NCBI GenBank assembly: GCA_964035015.1
Contig: OZ035997.1
Span: forward strand, 84,477,982 to 84,541,981
Direction: 5' to 3'
Source: Corallium rubrum
Taxonomy: Eukaryota > Cnidaria > Anthozoa > Scleralcyonacea > Coralliidae
Length of the DNA: 64,000 bases
Numbering within the stretch: position 1 is the stretch's first letter; each line of letters opens with the position of its first letter. The notes under the pieces were generated by a model, which was not told the origin of the DNA, searched no databases, and was given only the letters and a program-made list of their open reading frames with translations. Shown here piece after piece: positions 40,431 through 64,000 of the stretch. The position numbers and the translations under genes are program-made.

Positions 40431-40800
40431 GTACGACATGCATGCAGCCTCTGTACATTTGTCAGAACTACATCCTGGGATTAACTTGCCCATGCAGTTT
40501 CTAACCTCATAACGTCTACTATTGCTATAGAAACGTAGACGCAAAATATTTTGAAGCTACCTAGCAATATAGCAGTTCTTAATCTTAAATATACATATGA
40601 TTTTCTAATAAGTCACAATGACCAGCGCATAACTTTCTAACTAACCTGTGAACAAAGTAATTAAGTTATGGAAAAACTGTGACAGCCATTCTTTAGCACT
40701 TTCAGGAGATCTTACAGATGAAGAAAACTCAATTTTTATTTTATTTCCTCTTTAACGATGAGGTATATACGTATCAACTAAAAGATATAATTCTTTACAG

Positions 40801-41337
40801 AATACGTTTGGCCATGATTCTTCATACTGGAGCGACAAGAAAACATATCAAGTTCAACAAGGACTCGAAGGATTAACAGAAAAAGAAAGCAAGCTGGCCT
40901 CATACTGGAACACTCCTTTCACAAAAATATGTCTAGGCATGAGCGTCAATAATAGTGCCACTAAATGGATAAAGTTGGATTACGAAGCAAGTTCGCTGTA
41001 CAGTGTGATAGCAGGCGGAGTATTCCAAGCGACCACCGCTGGACGGAATACGTGGAAAACGCTGATCGACGGCTCGTCTTTACAGCCGCATTGCGACCGA
41101 GAGGGATTCAACAATAACGAGTACAATTCTAAGGTTGTTTTTGTAAGCGCACGTCTTGGAATCATCGCTAACAATGAAGATAATTGCGCTACATGTGATT
41201 CTTGGATTGGCTTTGGTATTTCGTTTAGCGGTTGCGGTATTGTGTCCGCCATAACCAACGGTAACCAGGCGATCTGTTCGGATACCGACAATGGACACAA
41301 GACTACTGCAGCATTTGGATACTTGTTAGTGCAGTGA
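40801..41337 (+). CDS. Fibrinogen-related protein, last exon
   Basis: After a TTTACAG acceptor it encodes 178 residues and TGA. Visible family features are SSYWSDKKTY, SYWNTPFTKICLGM, TKWIKLDY-ASSLYSVI, GRNTWKTLIDGSSLQPHCD, the RLGIIANNEDNC block and the end NGH-TTAAFGYLLVQ. With exons 1-3 the product is about 341 residues: signal peptide, PAN-like domain, FReD-like domain. A role in extracellular matrix, skeletal organic matrix or immune recognition is inferred from the family. Confidence 0.88.
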   Translation, partial: NTFGHDSSYWSDKKTYQVQQGLEGLTEKESKLASYWNTPFTKICLGMSVNNSATKWIKLDYEASSLYSVIAGGVFQATTAGRNTWKTLIDGSSLQPHCDREGFNNNEYNSKVVFVSARLGIIANNEDNCATCDSWIGFGISFSGCGIVSAITNGNQAICSDTDNGHKTTAAFGYLLVQ

Positions 41338-41583
41338 TAAAACAGTCACAAAACAACTGGTTTTCTCATTCTATGGTAGCTAATTGAGCGGGAAATCTGA
41401 CCCCACTAGTCTAGTCGCACGACTTGTCTGCTACAACTTATATTAATAATATGTATGGATGTTTTCACAAACACTTAAAGTGCATATGAAACGAAATTTC
41501 ACTTCAGTTTTTACTCGGGCAATGTGGTAGGCCGAGTCCAGGTTTCGGCGCATTTTTTGTTTGTTTTTTTTCCTTTCAGCATA
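41338..41583 (+). other. 3' flank / probable 3' UTR of the fibrinogen-related gene
   Basis: The sequence to about 41560 recurs at 62589-62800 together with the end of the coding exon, so the duplication included 3' UTR or flank. It contains an AAAGTGCATATGAAACGAAA-like MITE end and a TAGGCCGAGTCCAGGTTTCG block also found at 7180-7205. Confidence 0.6.
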
Positions 41584-41939
41584 TCCTCCTACCTAGAATT
41601 ACCAATAATCAGTAAGTGCGAAATGCTACCAATAATCGTTAATTTTAAAAACTAATTCCCAACCCCCACAGCCCAACCCTAACCTCTAAACTTTACCCTA
41701 AACCTAACCACAACCCCCCGGCAACCCTAACCCACAACCCCCCCCCCCCCCCGATGGACCTAAACCTAACCACAAACCTCCCTGCTCTCAAACTCCGACC
41801 ACAACACCCCTACTGTTTTTTTACTTATATTAGTTTAACATCCCGCATGTGGGACAGAGAATGACTTACAATTACCAATTATTGGTAATTCAAGGCCGTT
41901 TCACACTTACTGATTATTGGTAATTCTAGGTAGGAGGAC
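41584..41939. mobile_element. MITE with TCCTCCTACCTAG ends
   Basis: The left end TCCTCCTACCTAGAATTACC continues with AATAATCAGTAAGTG; the right end is the exact complement (about 35 bp). The interior is rich in AACCCTAACC-type words and a 14-base C run. It abuts the Penelope-like copy. Confidence 0.88.
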
Positions 41940-43114
41940 ATGTTGTTTTCTTTCAATGCCCAAATATATTTCGAAAGTTTGGTGTCGTTTGCATGCTTTT
42001 TATGCTGATTGCTGAAAAGATTTAGTGTGGTTGGCCAATCGCTCTTTGAATGTGGTTGAAGTCATGCCAATGTAATTCTTGATCGTGTTTGTGTTGTTTA
42101 CTGTGACTGTTGCTTTGTATACTATGTCCCTAGTCATGCATTGTTTTCTAAGTGGACAATTCGTGTTTTTCTTACAATTGCAACTGCTAGTGTCCTTATC
42201 CTGTGGCATGTTATTCCTAGATATGTGTGCATTGTGTTTAGTGATTATTGACTTAACATTGTTCATGCAGCTGTAACTTACTTTGACTGTGTTTCTGTTA
42301 AAAATTTTATGGAGCTTATGGTGTGGTGGGAAGTGTTTGTCAATTAGGTTTAGGAAATTACGTCCTATGTTTGTGCTTACACTCTTGCTAAAAGGTGGGT
42401 TGAACCAAGTGATGTTGCGTTGCCTATATTCCTGCGTGGTTGCTGTGCTGTGTGTTGAGTGTAGCTAAGCTCATGATCAAAGTTGCTGTGCCTAAGTGCG
42501 TTCTGATATATGGGTGCAGATTCCTGAAAAACTTGTTCATCTGATGAGAGAAGTGCAATGCGCTTGTTGATTGATGTAGGTAACTGTCTTGTGATGCTTG
42601 GTGGGTGGTTAGAGTGCTTATTTATGTAAAGCGGATCGTCATTGGGCTTCCTATAGGGCCTATAATTTCCATTGTTGAGGTCGTAAGTTACATCTAAAAA
42701 GTTTACTATGCGTAAATTTGATTCGGCGGTAATTTTTAGGTCAAACTGCTCGAAAATTTTGTGGAGTTCTTTCCTTGTTTTGTCTGCTAAACGTGCTGAT
42801 TTACTTTTTATAATAGCCAAACCGTCATCTCTATATAGGCCAATGCTTTCTTTGCCAAATTTCTTACTTAGGTGATTTAAAATGAAAAGGCCTACTAACT
42901 CACAAACTTCCGCGCCGTCGAAACAACCCATGGTAACGTCAAACAAACTATTGCTATCTTTTTTTATCCATGAAATTCCGGTATTGAAAAGGAGAGATTT
43001 TCTAGCGTGTTTTATTATTGAAATGTTGTTTTCAGTTATAGTAGCCAAATTCGAAGCCCAAGATAATGCTTGGTCCAATAGTTTTTCAGAAATAGACGGA
43101 TAGAAATCGACAAT
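41940..43114 (-). mobile_element. Penelope-like retroelement, minus-strand copy (5'-truncated, frameshifted)
   Basis: Reads from 43114 leftward. It has reverse transcriptase motif IVDFYPSISEKLLDQALSWA, the catalytic box GLYRDDGLAI (DD intact), then NFLDVTYDLNNG. A 2-base insertion breaks the frame near 42440. The following part encodes the Cys-rich segment and the GIY-YIG endonuclease start NYIGMTSTTFKERLANH, and it ends near 41940 inside that domain. It is a mirror of 43169-44755. The N-terminal part of RT is missing. Confidence 0.85.
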
Positions 43115-43168
43115 ATAACAAAAAACAATATAAAAGATAAGGACAGACATAGTTTTATTTCGTTTGAC

Positions 43169-44746
43169 ATTGTCGATTTCTATCCGTCTATTTCTGAAAA
43201 ACTATTGGACCAAGCATTATCTTGGGCTTCGAATTTGGCTACTATAACTGAAAACAACATTTCAATAATAAAACACGCTAGAAAATCTCTCCTTTTCAAT
43301 ACCGGAATTTCATGGATAAAAAAAGATAGCAATAGTTTGTTTGACGTTACCATGGGTTGTTTCGACGGCGCGGAAGTTTGTGAGTTAGTAGGCCTTTTCA
43401 TTTTAATTAAATCACCTAAGTAAGAAATTTGGCAAAGAAAGCATTGGCCTATATAGAGATGACGGTTTAGCTATTATAAAAAGTAAATCAGCACGTTTAG
43501 CAGACAAAACAAGGAAAGAACTCCACAAAATTTTCGAGCAGTTTGACCTAAAAATTACCGCCGAATCAAATTTACGCATAGTAAACTTTTTAGATGTAAC
43601 TTTCGACCTCAACAATGGAAATTATAGGCCCTATAGGAAGCCCAATGACGATCCGCTTTACATAAATAAGCACTCTAACCACCCACCAAGCATCACAAGA
43701 CAGTTACCTGCATCAATCAACAAGCGCATTGCACTTCTCTCATCAGATGAACAAGTTTTTCAGGAATCTGCACCCATATATCAGAACGCACTTAGGCACA
43801 GCAACTTTGATCATGAGCTTAGCTACACTCAACACACAGCACAGCAACCACGCAGGAATAGGCAACGCAACATCACTTGGTTCAACCCACCTTTTAGCAA
43901 GAGTGTAAGCACAAACATAGGACGTAATTTCCTAAACCTAATTGACAAACACTTCCCACCACACCATAAGCTCCATAAAATTTTTAACAGAAACACAGTC
44001 AAAGTAAGTTACAGCTGCATGAACAATGTTAAGTCAATAATCACTAAACACAATGCACACATATCTAGGAATAACATGCCACAGGATAAGGACACTAGCA
44101 GTTGCAATTGTAAGAAAAACACGAATTGTCCACTTAGAAAACAATGCATGACTAGGGACATAGTATACAAAGCAACAGTCACAGTAAACAACACAAACAC
44201 GATCAAGAATTACATTGGCATGACTTCAACCACATTCAAAGAGCGATTGGCCAACCACACTAAATCTTTTCAGCATAAAAAGCATGCAAACGACACCGAA
44301 CTTTCGAAATATATTTGGGCATTGAAAGAAAACAATAAGGATTTTAGTATTAATTGGCAAATTTTAAAACATTCCATTTCGTACACGGGAGGTTCAAAAC
44401 GATGTAATTTATGTTTAGAAGAAAAATTTTATATTTTGAAAGATAAAAACAAGAATTGTTTACTCAACAAAAGAGCAGAAATTATCAGTCAATGTCGTCA
44501 TCGAAACAAATTCCGCGCAAACAGCGCAACAAAGCCATGAATGCATGTATTGTTTCGCCCCCACACTCCCACGTTCCGACAAGAAGGATATAAGCACCCC
44601 CTGTTTTCGAAAATTGTCATCTGCCTGAAGATTCTTTTTTGGATGAAACAGCCTGTAGCAGACTTTTGAAGTAAGCGAAAATCTATATTTGCTCTAACTA
44701 TATGTTATCGAGCACTCTTTGCGTTTCGTAGACCAAAACCCACACG

Positions 44747-47339: not shown

Positions 47340-47590
47340 GGTATATTATAAGTACTATTGGGCATTTCACTCGATTACATAGCATGTTCTAAGGATTTAG
47401 GGTGAAGGAAAATTCGAGTGTAGAATATATACATTTTAAGACCAAACCGGGAGCAGTTGCGAAAAATGCAACTACACAGGCCCTCCGGCAGGAATCGAAC
47501 CCACGACCTTGCGACTCTAGTGCAATGCTCTGACCACTGAGCCACGGAGGCCGTTGCCGAGAGCTTGATCGCGAGTTCTGTATATATAAG
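47340..47590 (-). mobile_element. tRNA-derived SINE, full copy
   Basis: On the minus strand a tRNA-like head (47551-47479) has the A-box TGGCTCAGTGGT and B-box GGTTCGATTCC, an anticodon loop CTAGAGT and acceptor arms GCCTCCG/CGGAGGGC with one bulge. The body then follows, containing TGCATTTTTCGCAACTGC and TTCTACACTCGAATTTTCC. Body fragments occur at 18210-18345, 61785-61855 and 62245-62373. The bulged acceptor and attached body argue for a SINE and not a functional tRNA. Confidence 0.85.
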
Positions 47591-49890: not shown

Positions 49891-50501
49891 TTTTAGAAAC
49901 TGTCAAAAGATTTGAGACTAATCTATATTGATCAACGAATCAGGAACCGGATAGATTTCTGCTATATTATATATACCGCCTAATAACTTAGGGTAGAAAC
50001 TTTAAAAGTCATTTTCGTCTCATTGGCTTGCTTTTAAAAACTTTGGTTTCTTTATTGCTAACACGCTTTAACAGCGCACCTAAAAACGCCTCAATCAAAA
50101 CATCATTTAAATTATATATACCAAGAGCATGTAGAGCTGGCGAGGACTTACGATTTGCGCCCTCAGGAAGCTTATATAACTACATTTCAATTCCAAATAA
50201 TAAATCATCTATCTAAATTGTACGATCTATTTTATAGTGCAATTAAAGTAACTTAATTCAAATGACAAAGAATATCTCGTGCACTTAAGTTGGATAAAAC
50301 TCGCCTCCAATCCCTGTGCTAGTTCTTAAAACAAATTAATAAAGTGCAGTGTAATATACCTACCAATCCGGACACTATTATTATAATTACTATTATTACT
50401 ACTTCGATCTAGTGACTTCACCAAAACCTAAAGGTACTGAAGTATTGGGAAAGAACAGAGAAAAGAAACTATTTAATACTCCTTTCCGTGCAATGAGTAT
50501 A
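49891..50501. other. No recognisable feature
   Basis: AT-rich sequence; the frame at 50028-50216 has no similarity. Confidence 0.4.
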
Positions 50502-50903
50502 AGGCCCTGTGGACATGAAGCGGATTGAGTGTCCAAGTCAAATCTCGCATGTTGTTTCTCCTTGTTGTGTTTACATGAAGAAGATTGAAAGTTTTCGATC
50601 TGATCGAAACGGATGGCTGAAGTCAATCCACGCAGTGGAGTGGATTGACTTGAGATCCAAGCAAGGTTCGACTTGAATGTCTCCAATCTGATTCATGTAT
50701 TAAAACACGGTTTGACTTCAAAATGGCTTGATACGTACGAGTGAAGTTGGTGCGTGTCATGCTAAATGGCAGACAGTGAGGGAAGCACAGAAAATAGTGT
50801 TCCAAAACCGAAAACAATGTTCCATGCAGATCGGATTCTACATGTAAACATGTGCTCGGATTGACGGTTTTCGATCCCATTCGCTTCATGTAAACAGGGC
50901 CTA
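50502..50903. mobile_element. MITE with AGGCCCTGTGGACATGAAGC ends
   Basis: The right end GCTTCATGTAAACAGGGCCT is the imperfect complement of the left. The interior has several ACATGAAG and GGATTGACTT inverted blocks. It is related to 33655-34400. Confidence 0.8.
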
Positions 50904-52330
50904 ATTAGGAGTATATCGGCCAAACCAAACGTCAGTTTGGTACGCGGTTAAAAGAGCACGCGTGCCGCGTGGGATGATTCCAAAATTATTATCATTAATC
51001 CACGATACCATCAAAAACGTTGTATGGAGGTATGGTATGGCATATTAATATTGCTCACACGCTATTGAATCTCGACTACAACGGTCTATTACCAGAAGCC
51101 TATATTTGGATATTGTTGCGGCAGACAACGTTACGAGTGGTTGTCTTGTAAAGATCATCTGATGAAGTCACTAGATCGGAGTGTCGAAGCGTTGGGTATG
51201 AACAGTAACTTTTTAAGTTACGTTAATTCACAAACACGTAGCGATGTTCATACTGTATATGTACTGTGAGAAAATTCAATATAATAAAAATATAATTAAA
51301 AATGACTGTCCTAACTTATTCTGCAACTTATACAGTCTGTATTATACTGTTTGCATACTTAATAGCTACATGTAAGTTGTAACTAAAAAAAAATAGTGTC
51401 TTCCGTGACAGCGCGAGAATCAGTAAATTATATAGCCCGTACAGTATATACCCTCTCGTAACAGCCTCATCTAAAAAACTGTCTAGCAATTCCTGCAACC
51501 TTGGATGGAATGCTATGTCTGTTGGTATTCGTTACAGACCTGTACCGCTGCATAGGAAATACACTAGTATAATATCAGATACATGTAAATATACTAAGCT
51601 ATAAAGCTATTAATTAAAACTAAATGTGCCAAATACATTCAGAAATGGTTTTTTTTTAAACATTTTTAACAACTTTCCACATGTAAACATTTGCACTAGT
51701 AATTACATGTCTTTGAGAGTTTGAGGGCAATTTGGGATATACAGGTAGTCAGTTTTCAAAAACATTATGAAATTGCCCAATTGTGAACGAAGTGAGTTGA
51801 AAACTACTGAGGGCTATTTACCCGAAATTGCACGAAAAAACATGTACATGCAATTACTAATTAATTACATGTTACATGAAATTTTTGTTTCCTGCTTTCA
51901 GCCATTTTGAAGTGAAAAGCAGAAAGACTGGAGACGGAGTTTCCTGCCAAAAGAGGTCTTGGACGAAGGCAATTTCAAGCAGTGGGCAATTTCAAATAAT
52001 TGTACTGTTTGTGTGGTGAAACATATGGCAATTGCATGTAACATGTGATTACACAAGTTAATTAAATGTTTGCATAGTGACAAATTGTAAATACTGTTCA
52101 TAATCATTGTTTGAACAATATTGTTCAGCAGTGACAAAGCAAGATTTCTCATGTTGTTGGAACAGGGAAAATTAGTCGTATTCATTTGATGAAACAACTA
52201 TGTTCACTATTTTTGATAATCATGTCTGTTCCAACGTTTCACAAGTTATTACAGCATTGGAAAAATTGAATAATGTTGTAACAACTTAATATCATAGCAT
52301 TGACCATTTGCTGGTCAGTGCTCTTGTTTA
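50904..52330. other. Non-coding DNA with one hammerhead-like motif and a palindrome
   Basis: A CTGATGA ... GAAG motif lies at 51159-51190. An inverted region at about 51670-51890 has AATTACATGT/ACATGTACATGCAATT-type ends and TTTGAGGGCAATTTGGG against its imperfect counterpart. No gene was recognised. Confidence 0.45.
51159..51190 (+). ncRNA. Degenerate hammerhead-like core
   Basis: CTGATGA, A, stem GTCACT-AGATCGG-AGTGTC (one T-T mismatch), then GAAGC. The second box has G for the last A, so activity is doubtful. Confidence 0.25.
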
Positions 52331-52332
52331 CA

Positions 52333-52496
52333 GGGGCAGATCCAGGATTTTGGAAAAGGAAGGCCTCTACAAGTCATCGATCATATATGTAGCATCAGCA
52401 GTTGTTCAAAAGCAAAAATTTTTCGGGAAAAGTCTCTTTTTTATTTTACAATTTGGAAACAACAAGGTGCCATGAGCCCCTCTCCTGGATCTGCCA
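52333..52496. mobile_element. MITE with GGGGCAGATCCAGGA ends
   Basis: GGGGCAGATCCAGGATTTTG at the left and CCTCTCCTGGATCTGCCAC at the right are inverted. An AACCCTTTCCCT/AGGGAAAGGGTT pair at 52540-52650 marks a further palindrome just downstream. Confidence 0.65.
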
Positions 52497-52949
52497 CAGG
52501 TTCACACTGGTCAGCACACTGTTGCTCAAGCCTGTTAAGTAAACCCTTTCCCTATTAGGCCACCCAAAACCAGCCACTTTGTTATTTTACTCTGTCTAAC
52601 ACCAGATGATTTTACTCATCAAGTGAGAATACCTAGAGGGAAAGGGTTAATGCCCGTTTGCACAATAATTATGATTCTTGTATACGATTGTCATTCTGGT
52701 ATATGTGATTGTTCGTACACAATGCAACAGTTGCTGGTTGCTCGTTTCTGATTTTGATGAAAGTTGCACACTTGTCAGTAGAGCACATATAAATTATGTC
52801 ACCATGACAATCATATACAAGCACTGTATTGTGTAGATTACAATATAGAACAAAACATACAATAATTTCTAATTTATATATTTTAAAATAATTGTGAATC
52901 CTACCGTTTGGTAAATAAGTTGTGCACAGTCAAGCATGTAGGTCCTCTA

Positions 52950-53970
52950 TTACATCAAGCAAAGATCATTACAAGCTGACATTGCTGCTCTTTCGATGGC
53001 TTTATCTTTGGATGGTTGGGGACTCAGGCTTTCATACTCCTCCACAGTATAAAAACAAAGGCTACCATAAAAGCTAGCTTGGCCTCCATCAATACTATAC
53101 TTCAAAGAGGGCACATTGCTTTGTGTTTGCCAAAACATATAAAGCTTGCCTCTTGAGTTGGTTGGACCTGTCTTTGGAATTGGCTTTTTTTCTTCTTCAA
53201 GAAGCTTTAGAGCTTGTTTAGCCAAAGCTTCCTCTGCATCTTTTTTCCTTGGCTGTGGCTCCTGTCCACTCAAGTTAATATTCCATTCCTTCACCACATG
53301 GACCACAACACTGAATTTCTCTCCATCAGTGCACGTTGCTTCTTCATATTTTGGAAATTCAGTGTGAACACTCAGTTTTTTCTGGTATTCTTTCAACATT
53401 TTTTGGCAGCGATCTGTTGATTTACAATTACGGCCCTTGAGCTCTTCCAATGCATCCTTGGCAGTATTTTGCTCAGCATCTTTTTTCTTTTTTGCCTTTT
53501 TACCTTTGAAGCAACGTTTACCAAGATAAACTTTGCTGAAGTATTCCTTTGTTTCTGGCACTTCTTGGATTATATATGTCAGAACTATTTTGCTTCGTTT
53601 CACATGTTCAGCAAGAAGCCCTTTGAAATTTGATGTAATCGGAGCTGCTTGGGCTTCAGCTTGGTTGCCCTGATGTTCAATTGTATCTTGCAACTGATTC
53701 TTGTCGCTTTTCTTGTTTCCTGTCTGCGCCTTAGGTAGCACAATGGGGTTCTTTGTTGTGGGCAGATTTGAAGGTGAAGGTGAAAAGTCATTCTCTTTGC
53801 AATCATCTGTTGATTCATTGATGAAAGATTTCAAGGCCACCTCAGCAGCACTTTGCTCTGCCTCCTTCTTAGTTAATTTAGCCCCTTCAGATGAGAACGA
53901 TTTTCCCGCAACAGAAACTTTGCTGAAAAACTGGTGAGTTGCAGTTTCTTCATGAGTATACTTTGGAAGG
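52950..53970 (-). CDS. HEPN/dsRBD protein, 3' part (dsRBD 1 second half to dsRBD 4)
   Basis: Read from 53970 leftward. The frame starts in the target duplication (Leu-Pro-Lys) and continues YTHEETATHQFFSKVSVAGK ... KKEAEQSAAEVALKSF, the second half of a classic dsRBD (beta strands then the Lys-rich helix 2). Three more dsRBDs follow, numbered from the Met at 53840: residues 70-135 (KKKKDAEQNTAKDALEEL), 143-216 (RKKDAEEALAKQALKLL) and a degenerate one at 230-293. TAA is at 52950-52952. Such domains bind double-stranded RNA without strong sequence preference. No start codon of its own is expected before 53840, because the natural 5' half lies beyond the transposon at 55885-56949. No intron is visible. 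Confidence 0.85.
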
Positions 53971-55885
53971 GGCTATCTTTAAAACCAGGAACGGGGAATC
54001 AGGGAACGGAACGGGGAACGGAACCGGGAACGCGAAAACCAGGAACGGAAAAAGCCGGAATCTTTAAAACCAGGAACGGAAAAACCCGGAATCTTTAAAA
54101 CCAGGAACGGAAAAACCCGGAATCTTTAAAACCAGGGACGGAAAAAGCCGGAATCTTTAAAACCAGGAACGGAAAAACCCGGAATCTTTAAAACCAGGAA
54201 CGGAAAAAGCCGGAATCTTTAAAACCAGGAACGGAAAAACCCGGAATCTTTAAAACCAGGAACGGAAAAACCCGGAATCTTTAAAACCAGGAACGGAAAA
54301 ACCCGGAATCTTGCAACAAAACAGACGTTGGATTCTACTGACATACCCTGCTCCACGATGCTTCTTTCAGATGTAATTCCAGTGCTTTTGATTATATAAC
54401 GTATATTTCCTTTATTCGCTGGTTTGACAGCGGACACGCCAGCCGCGCTTATATATCGATTACGCAAATTGAAAATCGTTATTGTTGGAAATCGTCTTAA
54501 GCGAGTGTAACTATAAGTCGAGGGTCGAGAGTCGAGAGTCGAGGGTTGAAGTCGAGAGTCGATAAATTGACCAGAAAATACCAAAAAATCACTAATACTA
54601 TAATCGATTATATATCGCAACATTGTATCTTATTTCTACGCGCCGCGGGATATATTTATAACCTTTGAGCCTTTGATCTAAAAACCGGGGGAAAGCGGCC
54701 ACTTTCACGAACAGCTTACACAGGGGTCTAAGAACCGGGGGAAAGCGGCCACTTTCACGAACAGCTTACATACTTTCACGAACAGCTTACACAGAAATAG
54801 TGATGTATGCGTCGCTTTTTAGCACCGCGGGATGTATTTATAACCTTTGAGAATTTGATCTAAAAACCGGCGAAGTCGTTTTCAGGCTTGACGAGTCTAA
54901 ATAAAAACAATTAAATTCGACTAAAAATTCTTTTAATCTTTATAAATAAGAAAACGAAACGCACTCGGCAAGTCTCTAATTCTAGAATGAAGGTACACAA
55001 GTAACTTTTGTGAAGTTTCTTTTACAACAGCAGGAAACGAATATCTGTCATACGCCGTTAAGCCTTCAATTATCCTTTCAAACAAAACGGCGCCTGGCGT
55101 TACGCAGTATATAAATATATATTTGCTAAAAAGCGACGCATACATCACTATTTCTGTGTAAGCTGTTCGTGAAAGTATGTAAGCTGTTCGTGAAAGTGGC
55201 CGCTTTTCCCCGGTTCTTAGACCCCTGTGTAAGCTGTTCGTGAAAGTGGCCGCTTTCCCCCGGTTTTTAGATCAAAGGCTCAAAGGTTATAAATATATCC
55301 CGCGGCGCGTAGAAATAAGATACAATGTTGCGATATATAATCGATTATAGTATTAGTGATTTTTTGGTATTTTCTGGTCAATTTATCGACTCTCAACTTC
55401 AACCCTCGACTCTCGACTCTCGACTCTCGACTTATAGTTACACTCGCTTAAGACGATTTCCAACAATAACGATTTTCAATTTGCGTAATCGATATATAAG
55501 CGCGGCTGGCGTGTCCGCTGTCAAACCAGCGAATAAAGGAAATATACGTTATATAATCAAAAGCACTGGAATTACATCTGAAAGAAGTATCGTGGAGCAG
55601 GGTATGTCAGTAGAATCCAACGTCTGTTTTGTTGCAAGATTCCGGGTTTTTCCGTTCCTGGTTTTAAAGATTCCGGGTTTTTCCGTTCCTGGTTTTAAAG
55701 ATTCCGGGTTTTCCCGTTCCTGGTTTTAAAGATTCCGGCTTTTTCCGTTCCTGGTTTTAAAGATTCCGGGTTTTTCCGTTCCTGGTTTTAAAGATTCCGG
55801 CTTTTTCCATTCCTGGTTTTCGCGTTCCCCGTTCCGTTCCCCGTTCCGTTCCCTGATTCCCCGTTCCTGGTTTTAAAGATAGCCC
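53970..55885. mobile_element. 1.9-kb foldback transposon inside dsRBD 1
   Basis: Near-palindromic element of about 1915 bp. The ends GGGCTATCTTTAAAACCAGG and its complement are terminal. Arms of about 850 bp (left) and 760 bp (right) surround a unique loop of about 300 bp at 54824-55126. Each arm has a tandem array of a 31-bp unit (AAAACCAGGAACGG plus AAAAACCCGGAATCTTT), about nine units on the left and six on the right. CTTTGGAAGG occurs directly at both borders (53961-53970 and 55885-55894). The exact edge is ambiguous by one base each side, so the duplication is 8-10 bp. Matching 134-residue frames in the two arms (54219-54623 and 55325-55729) are mirror images and are not taken as genes. 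Confidence 0.92.
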
Positions 55886-56949
55886 TTTGGAAGGTCAAGC
55901 TTTTTCTTTTGAGCATAGCACTGAAGTGAATTCTTCATCAACGACTTGTCATGCTGGGTACCTGTCGAGGTTGCAGCCTGGTTAGCTGCGACACCACTAT
56001 TTTTTTCAATTTCACTCATTCTTGACTCCATACATTCAATTTTTCCTTTCTGCTCACCATAACTGAATTCAACAGTGTACATCCTTGCTTCTAAATGATC
56101 TGTGACATTTTTTAAATGATCACTAATGTTATTTAATTTCAGGTCGAATCGCGTCTCCAAATCTTTGTTGTGCTTAATCCAGTCTGAGAAATTATCAAGT
56201 GCCTCGCGAGTCTCTGGACTGACTTCATCTCCGGACTCCAGAAGCAGTTCGTGGGTTCTCAAACTGCCTTCGATACAACGAACTTCTACTTCCGGGAGGA
56301 TCTGAAAATCGCCATCCCTCAATGACTTTATTATTTCTACCTTCTCCTTGCAAACTTTCAAATTCTTCAAGAACAGTTCGTCCTCTAGAAGCGCGATAAT
56401 GGAGTCAATGAAGCTTTTCATATCCTTCTCGGGAAAAGTCATTGTCGGACAATGCATGACTTTGTTTCGAATTTTACGAACATTCTCGGGTTGTTTTTTC
56501 TCTTTTAAATAAATACGACCAAACTCCTTGCAGTTCACCAAGACGTTGAGAATGCCAGACAGGTCGGTTTTCTCGGGTCCCGTGTTTAGAGCCGCCGTGG
56601 TTTTGCTCCCTTGCGGATTCATAAAGCACTTGGCGATTTCCCACGGGGTTTCGTGCCATATTGTTGGCTCGGTGTTCTTCCAGTTCAACAGGCCTTGATT
56701 TCTGTATGCCTTGATTTCCTTTACCCATTTCGAACAGCTCGCACAGCTCGGTTCTTTGCCCTTGTTTGTCTTGCATGTACCGTCGCAACGACTCTCAGCT
56801 GTCTTTTTCAGAATATTCCCGTGGACTTTTTCTATCACGTCTTTTGTGAAATCGTGCAAGGCTTCCTTCGACTGGATAAGAGCAAAGGAAACTTTCAACC
56901 AGTTCTTATATTCGTCGTCGTTCAAGCGATTTTCTAGTTCGGACCCCAT
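55873..56949 (-). CDS. HEPN_DZIP3-type domain protein, 5' part, truncated by the transposon
   Basis: As it stands the frame gives 358 residues; the last three (GYL) come from the transposon. Residues about 12-200 resemble the HEPN domain of DZIP3-like proteins: EYKNWLKVSFALIQSKEALH, a Cys cluster (C55, C59, C69, C72), WEIAKCFM, LNVLVNCKEF, then VRKIRNKVMHC. The RNxxxH motif (RNKVMH, 161-166) is the catalytic signature of HEPN RNases and is intact. Residues about 255-320 look like a coiled coil, and SLMKNSLQCYAQKKKLDLPK (336-355) is the first half of dsRBD 1. ATG 56949 is the first Met of the frame. The product would be a cytosolic RNA-binding, possibly RNA-cleaving, immune-type protein; function is inferred from domains. 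Confidence 0.82.
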   Translation of the reverse strand: MGSELENRLNDDEYKNWLKVSFALIQSKEALHDFTKDVIEKVHGNILKKTAESRCDGTCKTNKGKEPSCASCSKWVKEIKAYRNQGLLNWKNTEPTIWHETPWEIAKCFMNPQGSKTTAALNTGPEKTDLSGILNVLVNCKEFGRIYLKEKKQPENVRKIRNKVMHCPTMTFPEKDMKSFIDSIIALLEDELFLKNLKVCKEKVEIIKSLRDGDFQILPEVEVRCIEGSLRTHELLLESGDEVSPETREALDNFSDWIKHNKDLETRFDLKLNNISDHLKNVTDHLEARMYTVEFSYGEQKGKIECMESRMSEIEKNSGVAANQAATSTGTQHDKSLMKNSLQCYAQKKKLDLPKGYL

Positions 56950-57261
56950 ACAAATATATTTTCGTCCAGCGCCACTGAATCTTAGAAAACTTCTTACCGT
57001 TATATGAGTCGCTTTTAGACCGCGACTGCGACCGCAACGCTGATTTTTTCGCCAAACGCTTTCGCTTTTACCATGGATTGTAAAAATGCTTTTACTTTCG
57101 CTTTTAGTTTAATAGTTTTGACAGTTTTGTGACCAATGTTTTGTTTACCGCCACATCGGCGATTTAACCAAGGTACCCGGCCCCTAGGATCAGTGCCCTC
57201 GCTTTCTCGGGTGACTTAAAAAAGTTTGGGAAAAAGTTTGCAAAGCGGGAGAAAAATATTA
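56950..57261. promoter_or_regulatory. Upstream region of the HEPN/dsRBD gene
   Basis: The 5' flank contains GCTTTTAGACCGCGACTGCG and repeated CTTTTAC/CGCTTTT words. No clear TATA box or splice site was identified. Confidence 0.3.
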
Positions 57262-57480
57262 TTAAATAATAGACGGCCGGCCAAGCATCCAAAATATTAC
57301 TGTTGATGGCATTCTTTGTTACAAGCAGGCAACCACGCTAGATCGCATCGGATAGTGTTTACTTTGAAGGTTTGGGGGGTTGCCATCCGTAATTCGGGAT
57401 TTCAATATAAAAATTTGGAGTTTTTTTGAAAGCACACTACGGCTTTGAAGTTGCAGGCTATTGAAGTTCCGCTTTGACGA
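57262..57480 (-). repeat. Dispersed repeat, reverse copy of 10385-10570
   Basis: Contains GACGGCCGGCCAA, AATGCCATC in reverse, ATCGGATAGTGTTTACTTTG and GGGGGGTTGCCATCCG, the complement of the intron 2 repeat. Confidence 0.6.
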
Positions 57481-57524
57481 CAGATGGGTTTTTGGTGGAG
57501 CAATGAAATGAGTCCTAATGTTTT

Positions 57525-57575
57525 ACGACGATTGGCTAATGTTTTCGGTCATCCAATCAGCGCGCGTAAAGTTTC
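57525..57575. promoter_or_regulatory. Candidate CCAAT-type promoter
   Basis: Two CCAAT motifs in opposite orientation (GATTGGCTAATG and ATCCAATCAGCGCG) are about 22 bp apart, followed on the plus strand by a possible donor (GACAAGAAG then GTAAAC at 57678). It could start an unseen plus-strand transcript. The frame at 57484-57681 spans it and is not supported as coding. Confidence 0.3.
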
Positions 57576-57689
57576 GGATGTCATAATTCGCATCAGCCAC
57601 AATGACAAACAAACAAGAAACGTGGCGTGGATACACCTAAATTTGAACACAACACATCGAAAAAAGGCGACAAGAAGGTAAACTTGTAA

Positions 57690-57998
57690 AGTTTTATAAT
57701 TGTTTTGGATCTGGTAGCTACGGTAAAGTCCTTTATATTAAGGGCTACAGTTGGTTTTGGTAATTTGCTGATACAACCATAATATATTTCCTTTTTATAA
57801 AGCAAAGCAGTCGTCCCGTGTTGCTCTGAACTTGAACATCAGAGTCAGAGCTAGCGAACCAAACTGAGTTGTTGTTCCTTATGACTTACCACTTAAATAT
57901 AAATATTAACCTTGGACGTGGTAAATGTGTGTACTGTCTTTAAGTTTTATATGTTATTCTGATTTCGTTTAACAATATTAGTTTACCGTATTTGTGTC
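57690..57998. other. No recognisable feature
   Basis: Ordinary AT-rich sequence. Confidence 0.35.
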
Positions 57999-58076
57999 AA
58001 CCTCGTACCCAGGGCCCTTATCTCCGCTCCCCCGCCCGGGCGGGGGAGCGGTGATAAGGGCCCTGGGTACGAGGTT
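57999..58076. repeat. Near-perfect GC-rich hairpin
   Basis: AACCTCGTACCCAGGGCCCT and TTATC-CCGCTCCCCCGCCC are mirrored around CGGGCGGG, giving a stem of about 36 bp. Confidence 0.9.
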
Positions 58077-59129
58077 GTATTTGTGTTCGCTATTGTATAA
58101 AGCTTATAATTATTTTGAAAAGTGCTGTCTAGTATCGAGAGGTTGGCCTTCTTGAGAAATAGTTTGATGTTTATGAATTCTTGTTGATTTCCTAATCCAA
58201 GCGGAGAAGTAGTTATCTTCAGTACAGATGAGAGAAGCTTCTTTCCAAATAATTTTGTGGTCCGTTGCCCAGATGTATTTGGCAGCAGAAGATTTTTCAC
58301 AGCGACTATATTTTGAACAACAACCGAGATGCATGTTCTCTTCCAGACATTTGGCCAATTTTCCCGTGTTTTGGTTGAAAGCCAGAGTTAGTTATTCAGA
58401 TAGTCCATGAAATTAGAGATTCTTGTCTGTCTGTCTGTCTGTATAGCATAGCCAAGTGTTGAAAGTATACACTGCTGTCAAAAGTTTGGTTTGGTGTGCC
58501 AGATCGTTGCTTAGATCGTTGCTTCCAAAGACTTGAGTTTTTTGTTTGGGTTAGGTCATCAAAATAATCTCGTTTGGTGGCACTTGAATCGCTGGATCAC
58601 TCGGGTACGGTAAACTGTAAAATTTCCAAATATTCAAACAAATTCGTCTTCTGTTGCCAAACACAATTGAAGAATGAATCACAAATTCTCTGCAAACAAG
58701 CTTCATTCATTTGCAACCTGTCAACCCCACTTCAACAATAAAATAGCAAATATAACTTACGATATTGTAATAATATATTATAACAATAAACGCTTGAATA
58801 TATCTACAATCTTATACAAACTTTCAATTGTTGTCGTTTTGCCTTCTTGCAATAACATAGCCTGATTTCTCTCAATATAAAAACTTTGGAGTTGAATATT
58901 CAGATCGAATATAATTTGCATGAAATGCGCCGGTATCAATGTGCCGGGGGGCTTGTTTTGCCATTCGCGTGTTCTCATTGGCTATGTAATTATAACCTGG
59001 CCAATCACAGGAAAGTACGGGTACTTAAATTGTTGCTAGGGAAACCGAACTTGGAATTTTCAATCCAGCTCGTAGCGCGTGAAATAGCTGTAGAAAACCT
59101 CAAAATTTTCACATAAAAACGCCGAAACT
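58077..59129. other. Non-coding DNA
   Basis: A short CTGT run at 58423-58442 and an AAACCCAAAC-type repeat word (58540-58560) are present. Small frames on both strands have no recognised similarity. Confidence 0.4.
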
Positions 59130-59306
59130 CGGATGGCAACCGGCCTAGTCGTCTTTGTCGAAGTCTAAGCTACATTTCTGTGGTGGTTGCCTGCTTGTAA
59201 CACGAAATGCCATCAAAGGTGTTTTCCAGGCACTTTTATTGAGGTTGGCCGGCCGTCTATAACATCTGCTAATAGCAGTCCAGCTCCTCTTCCTCCTTTT
59301 CCTCTT

Positions 59307-59319
59307 TATCATCATCATC

Positions 59320-59417
<98 letters not shown>
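59307..59417. repeat. (CAT)n microsatellite
   Basis: About 36 trinucleotides. It creates artificial poly-His (plus) and poly-Met (minus) frames. Confidence 0.97.
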
Positions 59418-59616
59418 ATCACCACCACACAATTGAAGGTGAAGATCGGAAAGGCGCTGCAGTCTGCGCAGAAAACTCCACTGAGCCTAAACACTGGGAG
59501 TTGGGGTTTGGCAATTTGCATATGTGGGGGCCCGAAGGCAAGCGGGAATTCACCTTTTGGGCATAAATATCCAAAAAGTCTTATAAACCATAACCAGCCG
59601 ACAATTTTAAAAAATA

Positions 59617-60790
59617 AAGAATAAAACATAATCCGAAAATCGTCATCTTGTGACTTGATATTCAAGTTAAAAACAAGATAAGACAAAATGAGAGGTAATA
59701 TTTCGACTCTATTTCAAAGTCATTATCAAACCAATAATTTACAAGCTTACTGAGTCCTATATATATACAATAATCACAAGGATGATGTCACCGCTTGGTA
59801 ACTGGAAAGGTCAGCAAGTTGACAAAACAGGTTAGACTGACATGTCAGCTGAATTGTTTCGAGTAAATGTAGATAAAAAAATAAAAGTTGACAGTGGTGA
59901 AAGGATATATACATATTAAAGTTCTAAAAATAAAGCTAAGGAAATAGAGATAGTTCTTTGCTGGCCTTTAGGCCATTGTTCAGTTCAGGCTTTCTAAATT
60001 TGATTAGAAGAGCTTCTAAAATAAGTAATTGATTTGTATTACCAAATTTACAGGAGTGAATTATTTTAAAGTTATTAAATATTTGGTTCGATATACTAGG
60101 TCCAAGAAGAGGGAGATCAGAGGTGAAAACTGAAAACTGAACGCTGCCTTCAAACTCGCCTTTCTGAACACTCTAATATCAACACTAGCGCTGTAGCACA
60201 GCACCTAATTGACTGTCCTCTTGCTCAACACCTTGCCAACCTCAACATTCTTTATGACAACCTTAATAACACCTCTGATCTCCCTCTTCTTGGACCTAGT
60301 ATATCGAACCAAATATTTAATAACTTTAAAATAATTCACTCCTGTAAATTTGGTAATACAAATCAATTACTTATTTTAGAAGCTCTTCTAATCAAATTTA
60401 GAAAGCCTGAACTGAACAATGGCCTAAAGGCCAGCAAAGAACTATCTCTATTTCCTTAGCTTTATTTTTAGAACTTTAATATGTATATATCCTTTCACCA
60501 CTGTCAACTTTTATTTTTTTATCTACATTTACTCGAAACAATTCAGCTGACATGTCAGTCTAACCTGTTTTGTCAACTTGCTGACATTTCCAGTTACCAA
60601 GCGGTGACATCATCCTTGTGATTATTGTATATACAGTGTATATAGGACTCAGTTTAAGCTTGTAAATTATTGGTTTGATAATGACTTTGAAATAGAGTCG
60701 AAATATTACCTCTCATTTTGTCTTATCTTGTTTTTAACTTGAATATCAAGTCACAAGATGACGATTTTCGGATTATGTTTTATTCTTTAA
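59617..60790. repeat. 1.2-kb palindrome made of Penelope-like 3' ends
   Basis: Arms of about 500 bp (59617-60118 and 60277-60790) are almost exact inverted copies around a 158-bp centre. On the plus strand from about 60142 to the stop at 60459 a frame reads RLSEHSNISTSAVAQHLIDC, LLGPSISNQIFNNFK and ILEALLIKFRKPELN, which match the C-terminal GIY-YIG endonuclease region of Penelope-like elements. The arms end in TCGAAATATTACC near a GACT/AGTC stem, a degenerate hammerhead-like motif (59701-59728 minus and 60685-60712 plus). Confidence 0.85.
60142..60459 (+). pseudogene. Penelope-like element, C-terminal endonuclease fragment
   Basis: Open frame of about 105 codons with no start, containing the EH...HLIDC and EALLI-FRKPELN motifs of the GIY-YIG domain end. 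Most of it lies in the right arm of the palindrome; the first part lies in the unique centre. The RT domain is absent. Confidence 0.7.
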
Positions 60791-60845
60791 GTCTCATAAA
60801 CATCCGACAAATACACAAAACGCGTTAGATTTTGACTGTGTTCCT

Positions 60846-60863
60846 GCCCCCCCCCCCCCCCCC
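60846..60863. repeat. Poly-C tract
   Basis: 18 consecutive C. The GC-rich DNA following (60890-60965) has no recognised function. Confidence 0.9.
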
Positions 60864-61048
60864 TTATGAATATTTCCAACAACTTAACTCTTTGCGGGAG
60901 GTGGTGGGGCGCCTGACCCCTTCCCCATCCCCGAGCCGGGCGACGGGCCGAAGGCCTGGAGCCTGGTGAGGGTGCTAATCTCGACACGCGTGGAGTTCAT
61001 TTTACACGCGTGTAGAAAAAGCAGGCAGACGAAAATCTGGAAGCTGTT

Positions 61049-61050
<2 letters not shown>

Positions 61051-61109
<59 letters not shown>
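61051..61109. repeat. (TA)n microsatellite
   Basis: About 29 TA dinucleotides. Confidence 0.97.
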
Positions 61110-61186
61110 GTCGTAGGGTGTCATGCGGTAAGAATTGTTGTACTGGTGACTGACAATGAAGCACCACAAAATTTTAGACTAAATCT

Positions 61187-61357
61187 ATGGCTATATTTTG
61201 CGAACGAAAGAAACGAAATGGAGGCCGCTCTACTAAAACAACAAACGGCGGTTTAATATATCTTGAAGAGAAACCTAGAAAACCTGAAGATACTAAAGAC
61301 ACTAAACGCTGTATGGTAAACAAAAAGGCGATCCGAATTGGCAGTGTTTATGGTAAC
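61187..61357 (+). other. Possible coding exon, unrecognised
   Basis: A frame with GGLIYLEEKPRKPEDTKDTK and KAIRIGSVYG ends near a GTAACTCAG donor-like site at 61354-61357. The composition is protein-like, but no family, acceptor or partner exon is evident. It could be chance. Confidence 0.2.
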
Positions 61358-62244
61358 TCAGGTAGGGGATTTATATATTTATTTTGCTGATTGGATTCAT
61401 TGTATTAACTTCCAAGACCGGCAATACGTTTAAATAAAAGCCCTTTTATAGTCACTCGTCCGTTAAACCTAATCTAGCATCTATTATATAAAGTTTAATA
61501 CATTGTGTTGTTTTCATTGACTGTGTATATGCACTTCTTATTATTATAATACTCATGGGCCGACTTTGCCGATTTTCTAGGCAGTATTTCCAAATTTTCG
61601 CCAGAAACGTTGTCTGTTTAATATTTCTTTCTGGAATCCGATTCTACTGAATTGTTTTCAGACTTTATATTATAAATGTAGTTTTGGAGCTGTTAGCTTT
61701 TAATTCTGCCTTTGCAAAACATGTATGCAGAACAGCAGAGGGAAGCCACTTAAAGACTTGCTAAAAATAATTCCCTTGGAAACCTACACTCGAATTTTCC
61801 TTCGCCCTAAATCCTTAGAACATGCCATGTAATCGAGTGAAATGCCCAATATCCAATTACAATATAAACAATGAATATATGTTTTACAGCTATAGTTCAA
61901 TTAATGAAACCTAAGTTTTGCTTCCATATGTTCAATTTTCAAATCAGAAATCTGAAAGTAAACAGTTAGTCACCCTATAAATGCATATCAGGAGGGCTTT
62001 AATATTTTAATCAGGGTATAAAATTTAAAGATGATCTGTGTGTCATTAATGCAACAAAAACAGAAATTAGGGGAGGGGAGGGGGGGGGGGGGGGGGGGGG
62101 AGTGGGGTTAAAAAATGCATATAAAGCAGGCGAGGGGTTGTTGCATTCATGTATTTCTAGTATATTATAATACTCTTCCTTCAAAATACGTGAATTCATC
62201 AGCCTCCATGCAAACGTGGCCTGAAGCCGAGTCCTTGAAGGACG
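61358..62244. other. Non-coding DNA with SINE tail fragment and poly-G
   Basis: A SINE body fragment in plus orientation lies at 61785-61855 (CTACACTCGAATTTTCCTTC). A G-rich run lies at 62070-62106. No gene was recognised. Confidence 0.5.
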
Positions 62245-62373
62245 TTCTAAAGATTTTGGGTGAAGGAAAATTCGAGTGTAGAATATATACATTTTAAGAC
62301 CAAACCGGGACCAGTTGCGAAAAATACAACTATACACAGGCCTTCCGGCAGGAATTGAACCCACCACCTTGCG
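62245..62373 (-). mobile_element. SINE fragment broken in the tRNA anticodon arm
   Basis: Matches the body and 3' half of the tRNA head of 47340-47590, with B-box GGTTCAATTCC. It stops at the anticodon arm, where sequence of the fibrinogen-related exon begins. Confidence 0.8.
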
Positions 62374-62588
62374 ATTCTAAGGTCGTTTTTGTAAGCGCGC
62401 GTCTTGGAATCATCGCTAATAATCAAGATAATTGCGTTACATGTGATTCCTGGATCGGCTTTGGTGTTTCGTTTGGTGGTTGCGGTATTGCAATGGACGC
62501 CATAACCAACGGCAACCTGGCGATCTGTTCGGATACCGACAATGGACACAAGACCACTGCAGCATTTGGCTACTTGTTAGTGCAGTGA
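62374..62588 (+). pseudogene. Duplicated 3' fragment of the fibrinogen-related gene
   Basis: About 70 codons equal to the end of the exon at 40801-41337 (from SKVVFVSARLGIIANN to GYLLVQ and stop), with a few substitutions and one extra codon (GIAMDAITNG for GIVSAITNG). The 3' flank is also duplicated, to about 62800. The 5' part of the domain is missing and is replaced by the SINE fragment. The conserved frame suggests recent duplication or a partial exon of a second gene copy. Confidence 0.85.
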
Positions 62589-62744
62589 CAAAACAGTCAA
62601 AAAACACTTTTCATATTTAACCTGGTTTTCTCTTTCTAACAGGTAGTCTAGTCGCACGACCTGTCTGCTACAACTTATATTAATAATATGTAGATGTTTT
62701 CACAAACACTTAAAGTGCATATGAAACGAAATTTCACTTCAGTT

Positions 62745-63205
62745 TTTACTCGGGCTACTGTGGTAGGCCGAGTCCAGGTTTCGGCTCGTTTTTTGTGAGT
62801 TTTTTTCCTTTTTGAGTGTCAAGATTTTGCATTTTTGCACTTTTTACTTCTGCTACTATTCATACTTCCGGTGAGTTGTTAGCAGCGTGACTGAGTGAGG
62901 CCGTGAGGCATGTTGTAAGTTCTTTGCTCCTTTTGCTTTTGGAGTTGAACAAAAAGTTGAACAACTTTGCTTTTTGATCAAGGTGTTCTTGCACGTTGTT
63001 GGTAGATTTCAAAATAGACTGACTGTTCATACTTCGGGTGAGTTGTTAGCCGTGTGATGGAGTGTTGGAGTGAGGTCATGAGGCATGTTGTAAGTTCTTT
63101 GCTCCTTTCGCTTTTGGAGTTGGACAAAAAGTTGAACAGCTTTGCCTTTTGTTCAAGGTGTTCTTGTACGTTGTTGGTAGATTTCAATATAGACTGACTG
63201 TGACA
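62745..63205 (-). repeat. Dispersed repeat, reverse copy of 6930-7205
   Basis: Carries the same TAGGCCGAGTCCAGGTTTCG block and GCATGTTGTAAGTTCTTTGC segment. The latter occurs twice here (about 62908 and 63080), so an internal part is duplicated. Confidence 0.65.
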
Positions 63206-64000
63206 ACTGTCTTAATCGTAAATATGTTCACCGCACCAACTTGTTTTAAATTGTATTTGGAAGAAAATCTAAGATAATGAAAAATGGCTTTTATATGCCT
63301 CCACGGTTGAATTATTGGTTATGCAATTTGAGCAATTACGTCACACGACGTTGTGGGAGAAAATCTGAACACGCAGAATCAGTCCACGGAGAGTAACTAC
63401 ACGACAATGCACCAATGAAGGAAAATTTCCAACGTTTGATTCATTTCAGTCAAAGCAATCCATAGATCTAGATGACTAATTTCCGTTTTCTCCCACATAC
63501 AATTTGTCACGTGTAGCGAGCGGAGCTTTAACACACACACATGCACACAACAGAGTTGGAGTGGAGAACAATTTAATAAAACAAAGTACAATTTAATTTT
63601 ATATAACAAAACCTTTCGTATGAACCTTACCCAAAGTAGGAAACTACGTCATTTACCTATTTTGTGGGAACGGCTAAACAGAGAGTTAATATTGGAGAGT
63701 TAAATCGGAGAGTTAAGATTTCGGAGAGTTCAATTTGAGCCACGCCCACGCTACGCCCGCTTTTCTCAACGACCACATCTAATTTCTTAACTCTCCCGAT
63801 GTTGTCTTTGGACTAACGTCAGAGAGTTAGTTTTAACTGAACTTTTTTCCTTCAAAAAGTAAAATAACACGCGGGAGTTAACTTTGTCTTAAGAATTTCT
63901 GAGTTCCGATACTAATAGTGTTACTTACCATCGAGTTATTTGGATTCAGGTAATACAGCGAAGATTCTAAAATTAGAGGTCTTTCTTGCCTTACTTTCGT
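63206..64000. other. Non-coding DNA with GGAGAGTTAA direct repeats
   Basis: Several GAGAGTTAA words lie at 63680-63735, and inverted TTAACTCTC near 63797 suggests a degenerate element. No gene was recognised at the right edge. Confidence 0.4.

What the first reader, a model, noticed from the sequence alone, without database searches (positions are those of the whole stretch)
52950..56949. HEPN domain with intact RNxxxH motif joined to four dsRBDs
Seen: a DZIP3-type HEPN region with RNKVMH, a coiled-coil stretch, then four dsRBDs in one reading frame (691 codons once the insert and one duplication copy are discounted). Known: HEPN RNxxxH domains include RNases such as RNase L, and dsRBDs bind dsRNA. 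Inferred: a dsRNA-directed sensor or nuclease, a plausible undescribed antiviral or anti-transposon effector in cnidarians.
Basis: partly seen in the sequence, partly recalled or inferred. Interest (0 to 1): 0.88.

Follow-up and report, generated by a model that had tools for sequence, protein, structure and literature searches.

The report
Broken copy of HEPN–dsRNA-binding gene
This is a transposon-broken duplicate of an animal gene that joins a probable RNA-cutting domain to double-stranded-RNA-binding domains; an uninterrupted sister gene nearby carries eight such binding domains and looks like an untested antiviral RNA sensor of a kind already predicted in other animals.

Summary
The anatomy is real: on the minus strand a HEPN half (55895-56949, RNKVMH intact), a coiled-coil stretch and four dsRBDs lie in one frame of 691 codons, interrupted inside the first dsRBD by a 1.9-kb foldback transposon with a duplicated target site. 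The family label is wrong: the HEPN half is DUF4559, the CXorf38 family, not DZIP3. The window copy is a broken duplicate. About 21 kb away on the same contig and strand lies an uninterrupted paralogue, 1199 codons with HEPN, coiled coil and eight dsRBDs; the window copy also lacks 510 of its codons. The genome has at least 16 DUF4559 places; only these two have dsRBD matches beside them. R, N and H of the motif are invariant in 11 of 11 aligned sequences. The CXorf38-dsRBD fusion was described in 2013 for vertebrates, cephalochordates and hemichordates and suggested to act on viral dsRNA, so the kind is known. New here: a form with eight dsRBDs in a genome that looks anthozoan, beside a broken duplicate. 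Most likely mechanism, inferred and untested: dsRNA brings HEPN domains together into an active RNase.

The parts
55895..56949 (-). N half of the gene: ATG at 56949, DUF4559/CXorf38-type HEPN domain and coiled-coil stretch, up to the target site
   Evidence: heptad test
56452..56469 (-). RNKVMH (Rx4H) motif, residues 161-166 of P0001
   Evidence: R161, N162 and H166 invariant in 11 of 11 sequences
56734..56787 (-). four cysteines C-x3-C-x9-C-x2-C (residues 55, 59, 69, 72), zinc-ribbon-like insert of the HEPN domain
   Evidence: sequence of P0001, also in the paralogue; only C59 is invariant in 11 of 11; zinc binding not tested
55885..55894 (.). target-site duplication, one copy (8-10 bp; exact length ambiguous)
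   Evidence: single in the paralogue (L015 4298-4307)
53971..55884 (.). foldback transposon inserted within the first dsRBD; inverted ends, arms with 31-bp tandem repeats
   Evidence: inverted arms of 697 nt (99%) and 260 nt (96%); related copies genome-wide
53961..53970 (.). target-site duplication, other copy
52953..53972 (-). C half of the gene (frame 52953-53972; its first codon overlaps the element end): rest of dsRBD1, linker and three more dsRBDs; stop at 52950-52952
53683..53685 (-). junction where 1530 bp (510 codons, in frame) present in the paralogue are missing: most of dsRBD2 and all of dsRBD3-5
50001..59523 (.). stretch with homology to the neighbouring paralogue region (tandem segmental duplication): near-continuous 51219-57269 apart from insert and deletion, patchy outside; left limit not explored
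   Evidence: query was window 50001-64000; shorter patches at 60867-62379, some inverted, may be dispersed repeats

Best explanation
The window holds a disrupted tandem duplicate of a CXorf38-family HEPN gene with C-terminal dsRBDs. The working version is most likely the paralogue about 21 kb away (HEPN, coiled coil, eight dsRBDs, 1199 aa). Proposed mechanism: several dsRBDs dock along long dsRNA such as viral replication intermediates or inverted-repeat transposon transcripts; the coiled coil and the shared dsRNA bring HEPN domains together; paired HEPN domains form a metal-independent RNase active site with R, N and H and cut RNA. Shown here: domain content, single frame, intact motif, tandem duplication, insertion and deletion. 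Inferred: RNA binding, dimerisation, RNase activity, antiviral role.
For: DUF4559 at 4.6e-43 and dsrm at 2.3e-18 in the two window halves. The paralogue is one open frame with both (DUF4559 4.3e-40; dsrm 1.8e-57, 7 stretches); 7 of its 8 dsRBDs exceed the Pfam cut-off singly. R161, N162 and H166 are among 19 invariant columns in 11 aligned sequences (window copy and paralogue included) with mean column identity 47%. HEPN_Swt1 matches 11 of 11 at E up to 0.1 (best 7.8e-7). A profile of the 11 hits a PDB CRISPR-associated protein over its RNxxxH motif (E 0.0015 whole sequence, 0.0041 for the stretch). The two copies differ less at nonsynonymous than at synonymous sites (dN 0.047, dS 0.108, Fisher P 4.5e-5). 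Role of H, R and the next residue in related HEPN RNases: PMC3710099, passages.
Against: No activity, expression or binding data. The structure model of the N half failed (mean pLDDT 41.8), so the HEPN fold rests on profiles, and HEPN_Swt1 stays below its curated cut-off for the window protein and for all 8 proteins scanned. The third basic residue of the usual KKxAK RNA-contact motif (recalled) is absent in 5 of 8 paralogue dsRBDs (alignment), so several may not bind RNA. dN/dS of 0.435 is only moderate constraint. No orthologue in another cnidarian could be examined, and expression of the paralogue is unknown.
Confidence: 0.6

Rival explanations
1. A dsRNA-binding adaptor without RNase activity: the HEPN domain is a dimerisation or RNA-binding module and the protein works as a cofactor of RNAi or RNA localisation, like TRBP or Staufen (recalled).
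For: Multiple dsRBDs, several with incomplete RNA-contact motifs; weak Dicer_dimer matches.
Against: R, N and H are invariant in 11 of 11 sequences, nine of them only 20-30% identical to the window copy, as expected of an active site.
Confidence: 0.2
2. The window copy still works in a shortened form: HEPN plus coiled coil ending three codons into the transposon, a dsRBD-free product.
For: The N half is open from ATG to a stop just inside the insert. Its DUF4559 score is no worse than the paralogue's (148.3 against 138.5; 148.1 against 143.4), while its last two dsRBDs score lower than theirs.
Against: Equally expected if the insertion is recent; no transcript evidence.
Confidence: 0.15
3. DZIP3-type HEPN protein.
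For: Profile-profile comparison aligns the two groups over the RN...H region (E 0.011 for this single comparison), as distant members of one superfamily would.
Against: Probability only 3.9 in that comparison; no HEPN_DZIP3 match in 11 of 11; the seven DZIP3-type domains aligned from this genome have R-x5-H, the window R-x4-H.
Confidence: 0.02
4. The foldback insert or the eight-dsRBD paralogue is an assembly artefact.
For: Inverted repeats and tandem duplicates are hard to assemble; reads were not available.
Against: The insert has inverted ends and a target-site duplication at a site that is single in the paralogue and many relatives. The eight dsRBDs are 12-43% identical to each other, so they are not repeated reads.
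Confidence: 0.03

Closest known systems
CXorf38 family HEPN proteins (DUF4559, PF15112)
   Same: Same Pfam family over nearly its whole length, RNxxxH, four cysteines in the place of a Zn ribbon; dsRBD fusions reported in vertebrates, cephalochordates and hemichordates (PMC3710099, passages). That human CXorf38 carries DUF4559 is stated in PMC4554924 (passage).
   Different: Here in a genome that looks anthozoan, with eight dsRBDs in the uninterrupted copy; the passages seen give cnidarian fusions as NACHT and DEATH only and no dsRBD count.
DZIP3/hRUL138 HEPN proteins
   Same: HEPN superfamily; common in cnidarian NLR-like proteins (PMC8260672, PMC10236652, passages).
   Different: Different HEPN family; no profile match, different motif spacing.
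RNase L and PKR (recalled)
   Same: Proposed logic: dsRNA-triggered pairing of an effector domain.
   Different: No ankyrin 2-5A sensor and no kinase were matched in the window halves or the paralogue.
Bacterial HEPN-RNase III-dsRBD proteins (cyanobacteria)
   Same: HEPN and dsRBD in one protein (PMC3710099, passage).
   Different: Contain RNase III; our pattern scans found no confirmed relative in prokaryote genomes or viral contigs.

Membership tests
CXorf38 / DUF4559 HEPN family | Match to PF15112 over most of its length | tested here: met
   window 148.3 bits, profile 1-295 of 305, cut-off 27; paralogue 138.5
CXorf38 / DUF4559 HEPN family | RNxxxH motif | tested here: met
   RNKVMH; R, N, H invariant in 11 of 11
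CXorf38 / DUF4559 HEPN family | Zn ribbon inserted into HEPN | tested here: inconclusive
   four cysteines in both dsRBD copies, but only one of them invariant in 11 of 11; zinc binding not testable
CXorf38 / DUF4559 HEPN family | Membership of the Swt1-like HEPN group | tested here: inconclusive
   HEPN_Swt1 in 11 of 11 at E up to 0.1, best 7.8e-7, but 20.4 bits against a cut-off of 27.5 for the window sequence
HEPN fold | Four-helix HEPN structure | tested here: inconclusive
   single-sequence model too poor (pLDDT 41.8)
DZIP3-type HEPN | Match to PF18738 | tested here: not met
   12 matches elsewhere in the genome, none in the window
dsRBD (PF00035) | Profile match over the domain | tested here: met
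   paralogue 7 of 8 over cut-off; window 2 of 4 over cut-off, 2 weak
dsRBD (PF00035) | RNA-contact lysines (KKxAK, recalled) | tested here: inconclusive
   KKxAK or KKxAR in dsRBD4 and 5, IKEAK in 3, third basic residue absent in 1, 2, 6, 7, 8 (alignment)
HEPN RNase | RNA cleavage | not testable with these tools
   needs biochemistry

The most novel reading that the evidence does not exclude
A directly dsRNA-activated RNase outside vertebrates: eight dsRBDs act as a ruler that only long dsRNA fills, pairing HEPN domains without a 2-5A second messenger, and the dsRBD-HEPN fusion predates the split of cnidarians and bilaterians (an independent fusion is not excluded by one genome). The foldback element that broke one copy could itself give hairpin RNA, the kind of trigger such a protein would sense.
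Probability: 0.3. Interest if true: 0.75.

Novelty: new variant of a known kind. Interest (0 to 1): 0.42.

Why it matters
The CXorf38 family was predicted in 2013 to be an RNase group with a possible role against RNA viruses (PMC3710099, passages). The two other CXorf38 papers opened here (PMC12196990 and PMC9623088, passages) treat it as an uncharacterised human protein; a term search found no mention of RNase in the first, and no cleavage test is in the passages seen. A form with eight dsRBDs in one open frame gives a clean protein for testing whether dsRNA switches on a HEPN RNase directly, and, if the genome is cnidarian as it seems, suggests that the HEPN-dsRBD pairing may be older than Bilateria.

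Tried and rejected
DZIP3 assignment: rejected on profiles. Prokaryotic or viral relatives: 6 and 36 pattern matches, none confirmed (the patterns come from one or two short stretches). PADLOC: one hit, PDC-S05 at E 0.02, outside the HEPN domain, ignored. PDB by single sequence: the C half gave 7 hits up to E 1, best a double-stranded RNA-binding protein 4 at 8.8e-5, others weak dsRBD proteins and chance-level hits such as saporin and ribosomal S6; the N half gave 5 weak coiled-coil-type hits. Structure of the N half: unusable; no fold search was run on it. The C half was never accepted by the queue. Literature: 'dsRBD', 'HEPN', 'coral' together gave 0 papers; 'CXorf38' with 'double-stranded RNA' gave 1, the 2013 paper; two searches aimed at proteins with many dsRBDs gave listings of 15 and 1, of which one paper was opened (PMC4718636), and I saw no eight-dsRBD protein named; this is not proof that none is published. 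A listing on foldback elements in corals was not followed. 8Y7F and 8Y6Z could not be tied to a paper. The target-site length of the foldback family was not settled from three other copies: for one the right end lay outside the fetched stretch, two had flanks only partly alike. The heptad test is home-made and slightly generous, because shuffles were sampled at every third start and the real sequence at every start.

Full report
Observation. The finding lies on the minus strand. Two open frames carry it: 55873-57108 (411 codons stop to stop; ATG at 56949) and 52950-53972 (340 codons). Between them is a 1.9-kb element with long inverted arms (697 nt at 99%, another pair of 260 nt at 96%) rich in 31-bp tandem repeats. 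The same 10 bp flank it on both sides (53961-53970 and 55885-55894).

What the halves are. Pfam puts the N half in PF15112 DUF4559 (4.6e-43, profile 1-295 of 305) with a weak HEPN_Swt1 match (0.003, below its cut-off) over the motif; the C half matches dsrm at 2.3e-18. DUF4559 is present in human CXorf38 (PMC4554924, passage). HEPN_DZIP3 does not match. In the same genome HEPN_DZIP3 has 12 matches, none in the window. Seven of these 12, aligned, have the spacing R-x5-H, the window R-x4-H. A profile comparison between the two groups gives probability 3.9 and E 0.011, aligned over the RN...H region, which fits distant members of one superfamily. So the call HEPN is supported and the DZIP3 label is wrong.

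The paralogue. The window lies on contig C1 of G000, a genome of 474 Mb. Searching with each half found a second copy on the same strand about 21 kb away (N half 92% identical; C half in two pieces, 89% and 85%), all inside one open frame of 1256 codons. From its ATG it encodes 1199 residues. It has no insert, the target site being single at L015 4298-4307, and has 1530 bp (510 codons) more than the window copy. By alignment it has eight dsRBDs of 12-43% identity to one another. Scanned singly, 7 of 8 exceed the Pfam cut-off; the seventh scores 20.6 against 23. The genome-wide dsrm search reported 6 of the 8. The window copy keeps only the first few residues of dsRBD2 and resumes before dsRBD6, which points to a deletion in the window copy rather than a gain in the paralogue (inference). 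Homology continues into flanking DNA on both sides, so this is a tandem segmental duplication.

State of the window copy. Apart from the insertion and the deletion there is no frameshift or stop in 687 compared codons. dN is 0.047 and dS 0.108, ratio 0.435, with proportionally fewer nonsynonymous changes (P 4.5e-5). Its third and fourth dsRBDs score 14.5 and 14.4 bits against 20.6 and 30.7 in the paralogue, while its DUF4559 score is slightly higher (148.3 against 138.5; 148.1 against 143.4). The insertion is therefore probably recent, or the HEPN half is still used; the data do not decide. The four dsRBDs that the window copy lacks (2-5) include the two with a full KKxA(K/R) motif, 4 and 5 (alignment; the motif is recalled).

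Relatives in the genome. Pfam DUF4559 finds 16 places, a lower bound, the two dsRBD-bearing copies scoring highest. Of the others, two scanned at full length (L017, L018) continue into NB-ARC/NACHT-like and TPR domains. dsrm has 23 matches genome-wide: 6 in the paralogue, 2 in the window copy, 15 elsewhere; none of the 15 lies near another DUF4559 place (the search reads exon by exon, so weak or split dsRBDs could be missed). Eleven of the 16 N-terminal regions were aligned (left out: a near-identical copy on C22 and four on C28); R161, N162 and H166 are invariant at a mean column identity of 47%. The set includes the window copy and the paralogue, 94% alike; the other nine are 20-30% identical to the window copy. 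HEPN_Swt1 matches 11 of 11 at E up to 0.1 (best 7.8e-7), HEPN_RiboL-PSP 2 and HEPN_AbiU2 1. The profile of these 11 hits a CRISPR-associated protein in the PDB at E 0.0015 over its own RNxxxH (four distinct sequences listed up to E 10, all named CRISPR-associated protein). This is good evidence for HEPN by sequence. The structure model was too poor to add anything.

Coiled coil. The stretch before the dsRBDs has a heptad pattern reached by 1% of shuffled sequences for the window copy and 0.5% for the paralogue. This is a simple home-made test, slightly generous to the real sequence.

Organism. The one GFP-family match found in the genome is an exon whose best PDB matches are red fluorescent proteins, drFP583 (DsRed) among the first (60 of 290 listed). 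This fits an anthozoan; the species was not determined.

Prior work. Anantharaman et al. 2013 (PMC3710099; [quoted passage not shown] Two cnidarian surveys mention DZIP3-type HEPN in NLR-like proteins (passages). A search for HEPN, dsRBD and coral together gave 0 papers. So the kind is known and the prediction of function is not new. The eight-dsRBD form in a probable cnidarian and the broken tandem copy are what this adds.

Mechanism. HEPN RNases use R, the next polar residue and H for metal-independent cleavage (PMC3710099, passage). That they act as dimers is recalled. With a coiled coil and many dsRBDs, the simplest mechanism is dsRNA-templated pairing of HEPN domains, followed by RNA cleavage. 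Shown: domains, frame, motif. Inferred: everything about activity. Several dsRBDs lack the usual RNA contacts and may serve in protein contacts instead, as the third dsRBD of TRBP does (PMC4718636, passage).

Noticed in passing
window 59615-60789: Second long perfect hairpin: arms 59762-60125/60270-60633 (364 nt, 100%) and 59615-59749/60655-60789 (135 nt, 100%), probably another foldback or palindromic element.
   Followed up: no
window 53971-55884; C295, C8, C1:83.96 Mb, C46: A 311-bp arm segment of the foldback element has 49 matches (40 of 171 candidates scored, window's own two included), several paired and 97-100% identical over the full segment, so the family looks recently active.
   Followed up: partly
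window 40762-44537: Several open frames (up to 377 codons) on both strands; four of them (40762-41334, 42003-42464, 42380-43201, 43407-44537) were scanned with no Pfam match over a cut-off, one sub-cut-off Dam hit; possibly remains of a retroelement (guess).
   Followed up: no
L017, L018 (scanned), L019 and L021 (by eye), contigs C1 and C28: NB-ARC/TPR proteins with an N-terminal DUF4559 HEPN domain, clustered on C28; one C28 match (L041) has an internal TGA.
   Followed up: partly
L023, L026, L027: DUF4559 frames with a hydrophobic tail followed on the same strand, 0.7 to 1.7 kb on, by long frames with NTPase-like and ankyrin-like sequence (judged by eye), perhaps exons of one gene.
   Followed up: no
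G000 C1:84740513 and C1:84990346: Two HEPN_DZIP3 matches lie about 0.20 and 0.45 Mb beyond the window on the same contig.
   Followed up: no
window 47479-47551: tRNA-Ser (aga) gene, minus strand.
   Followed up: no
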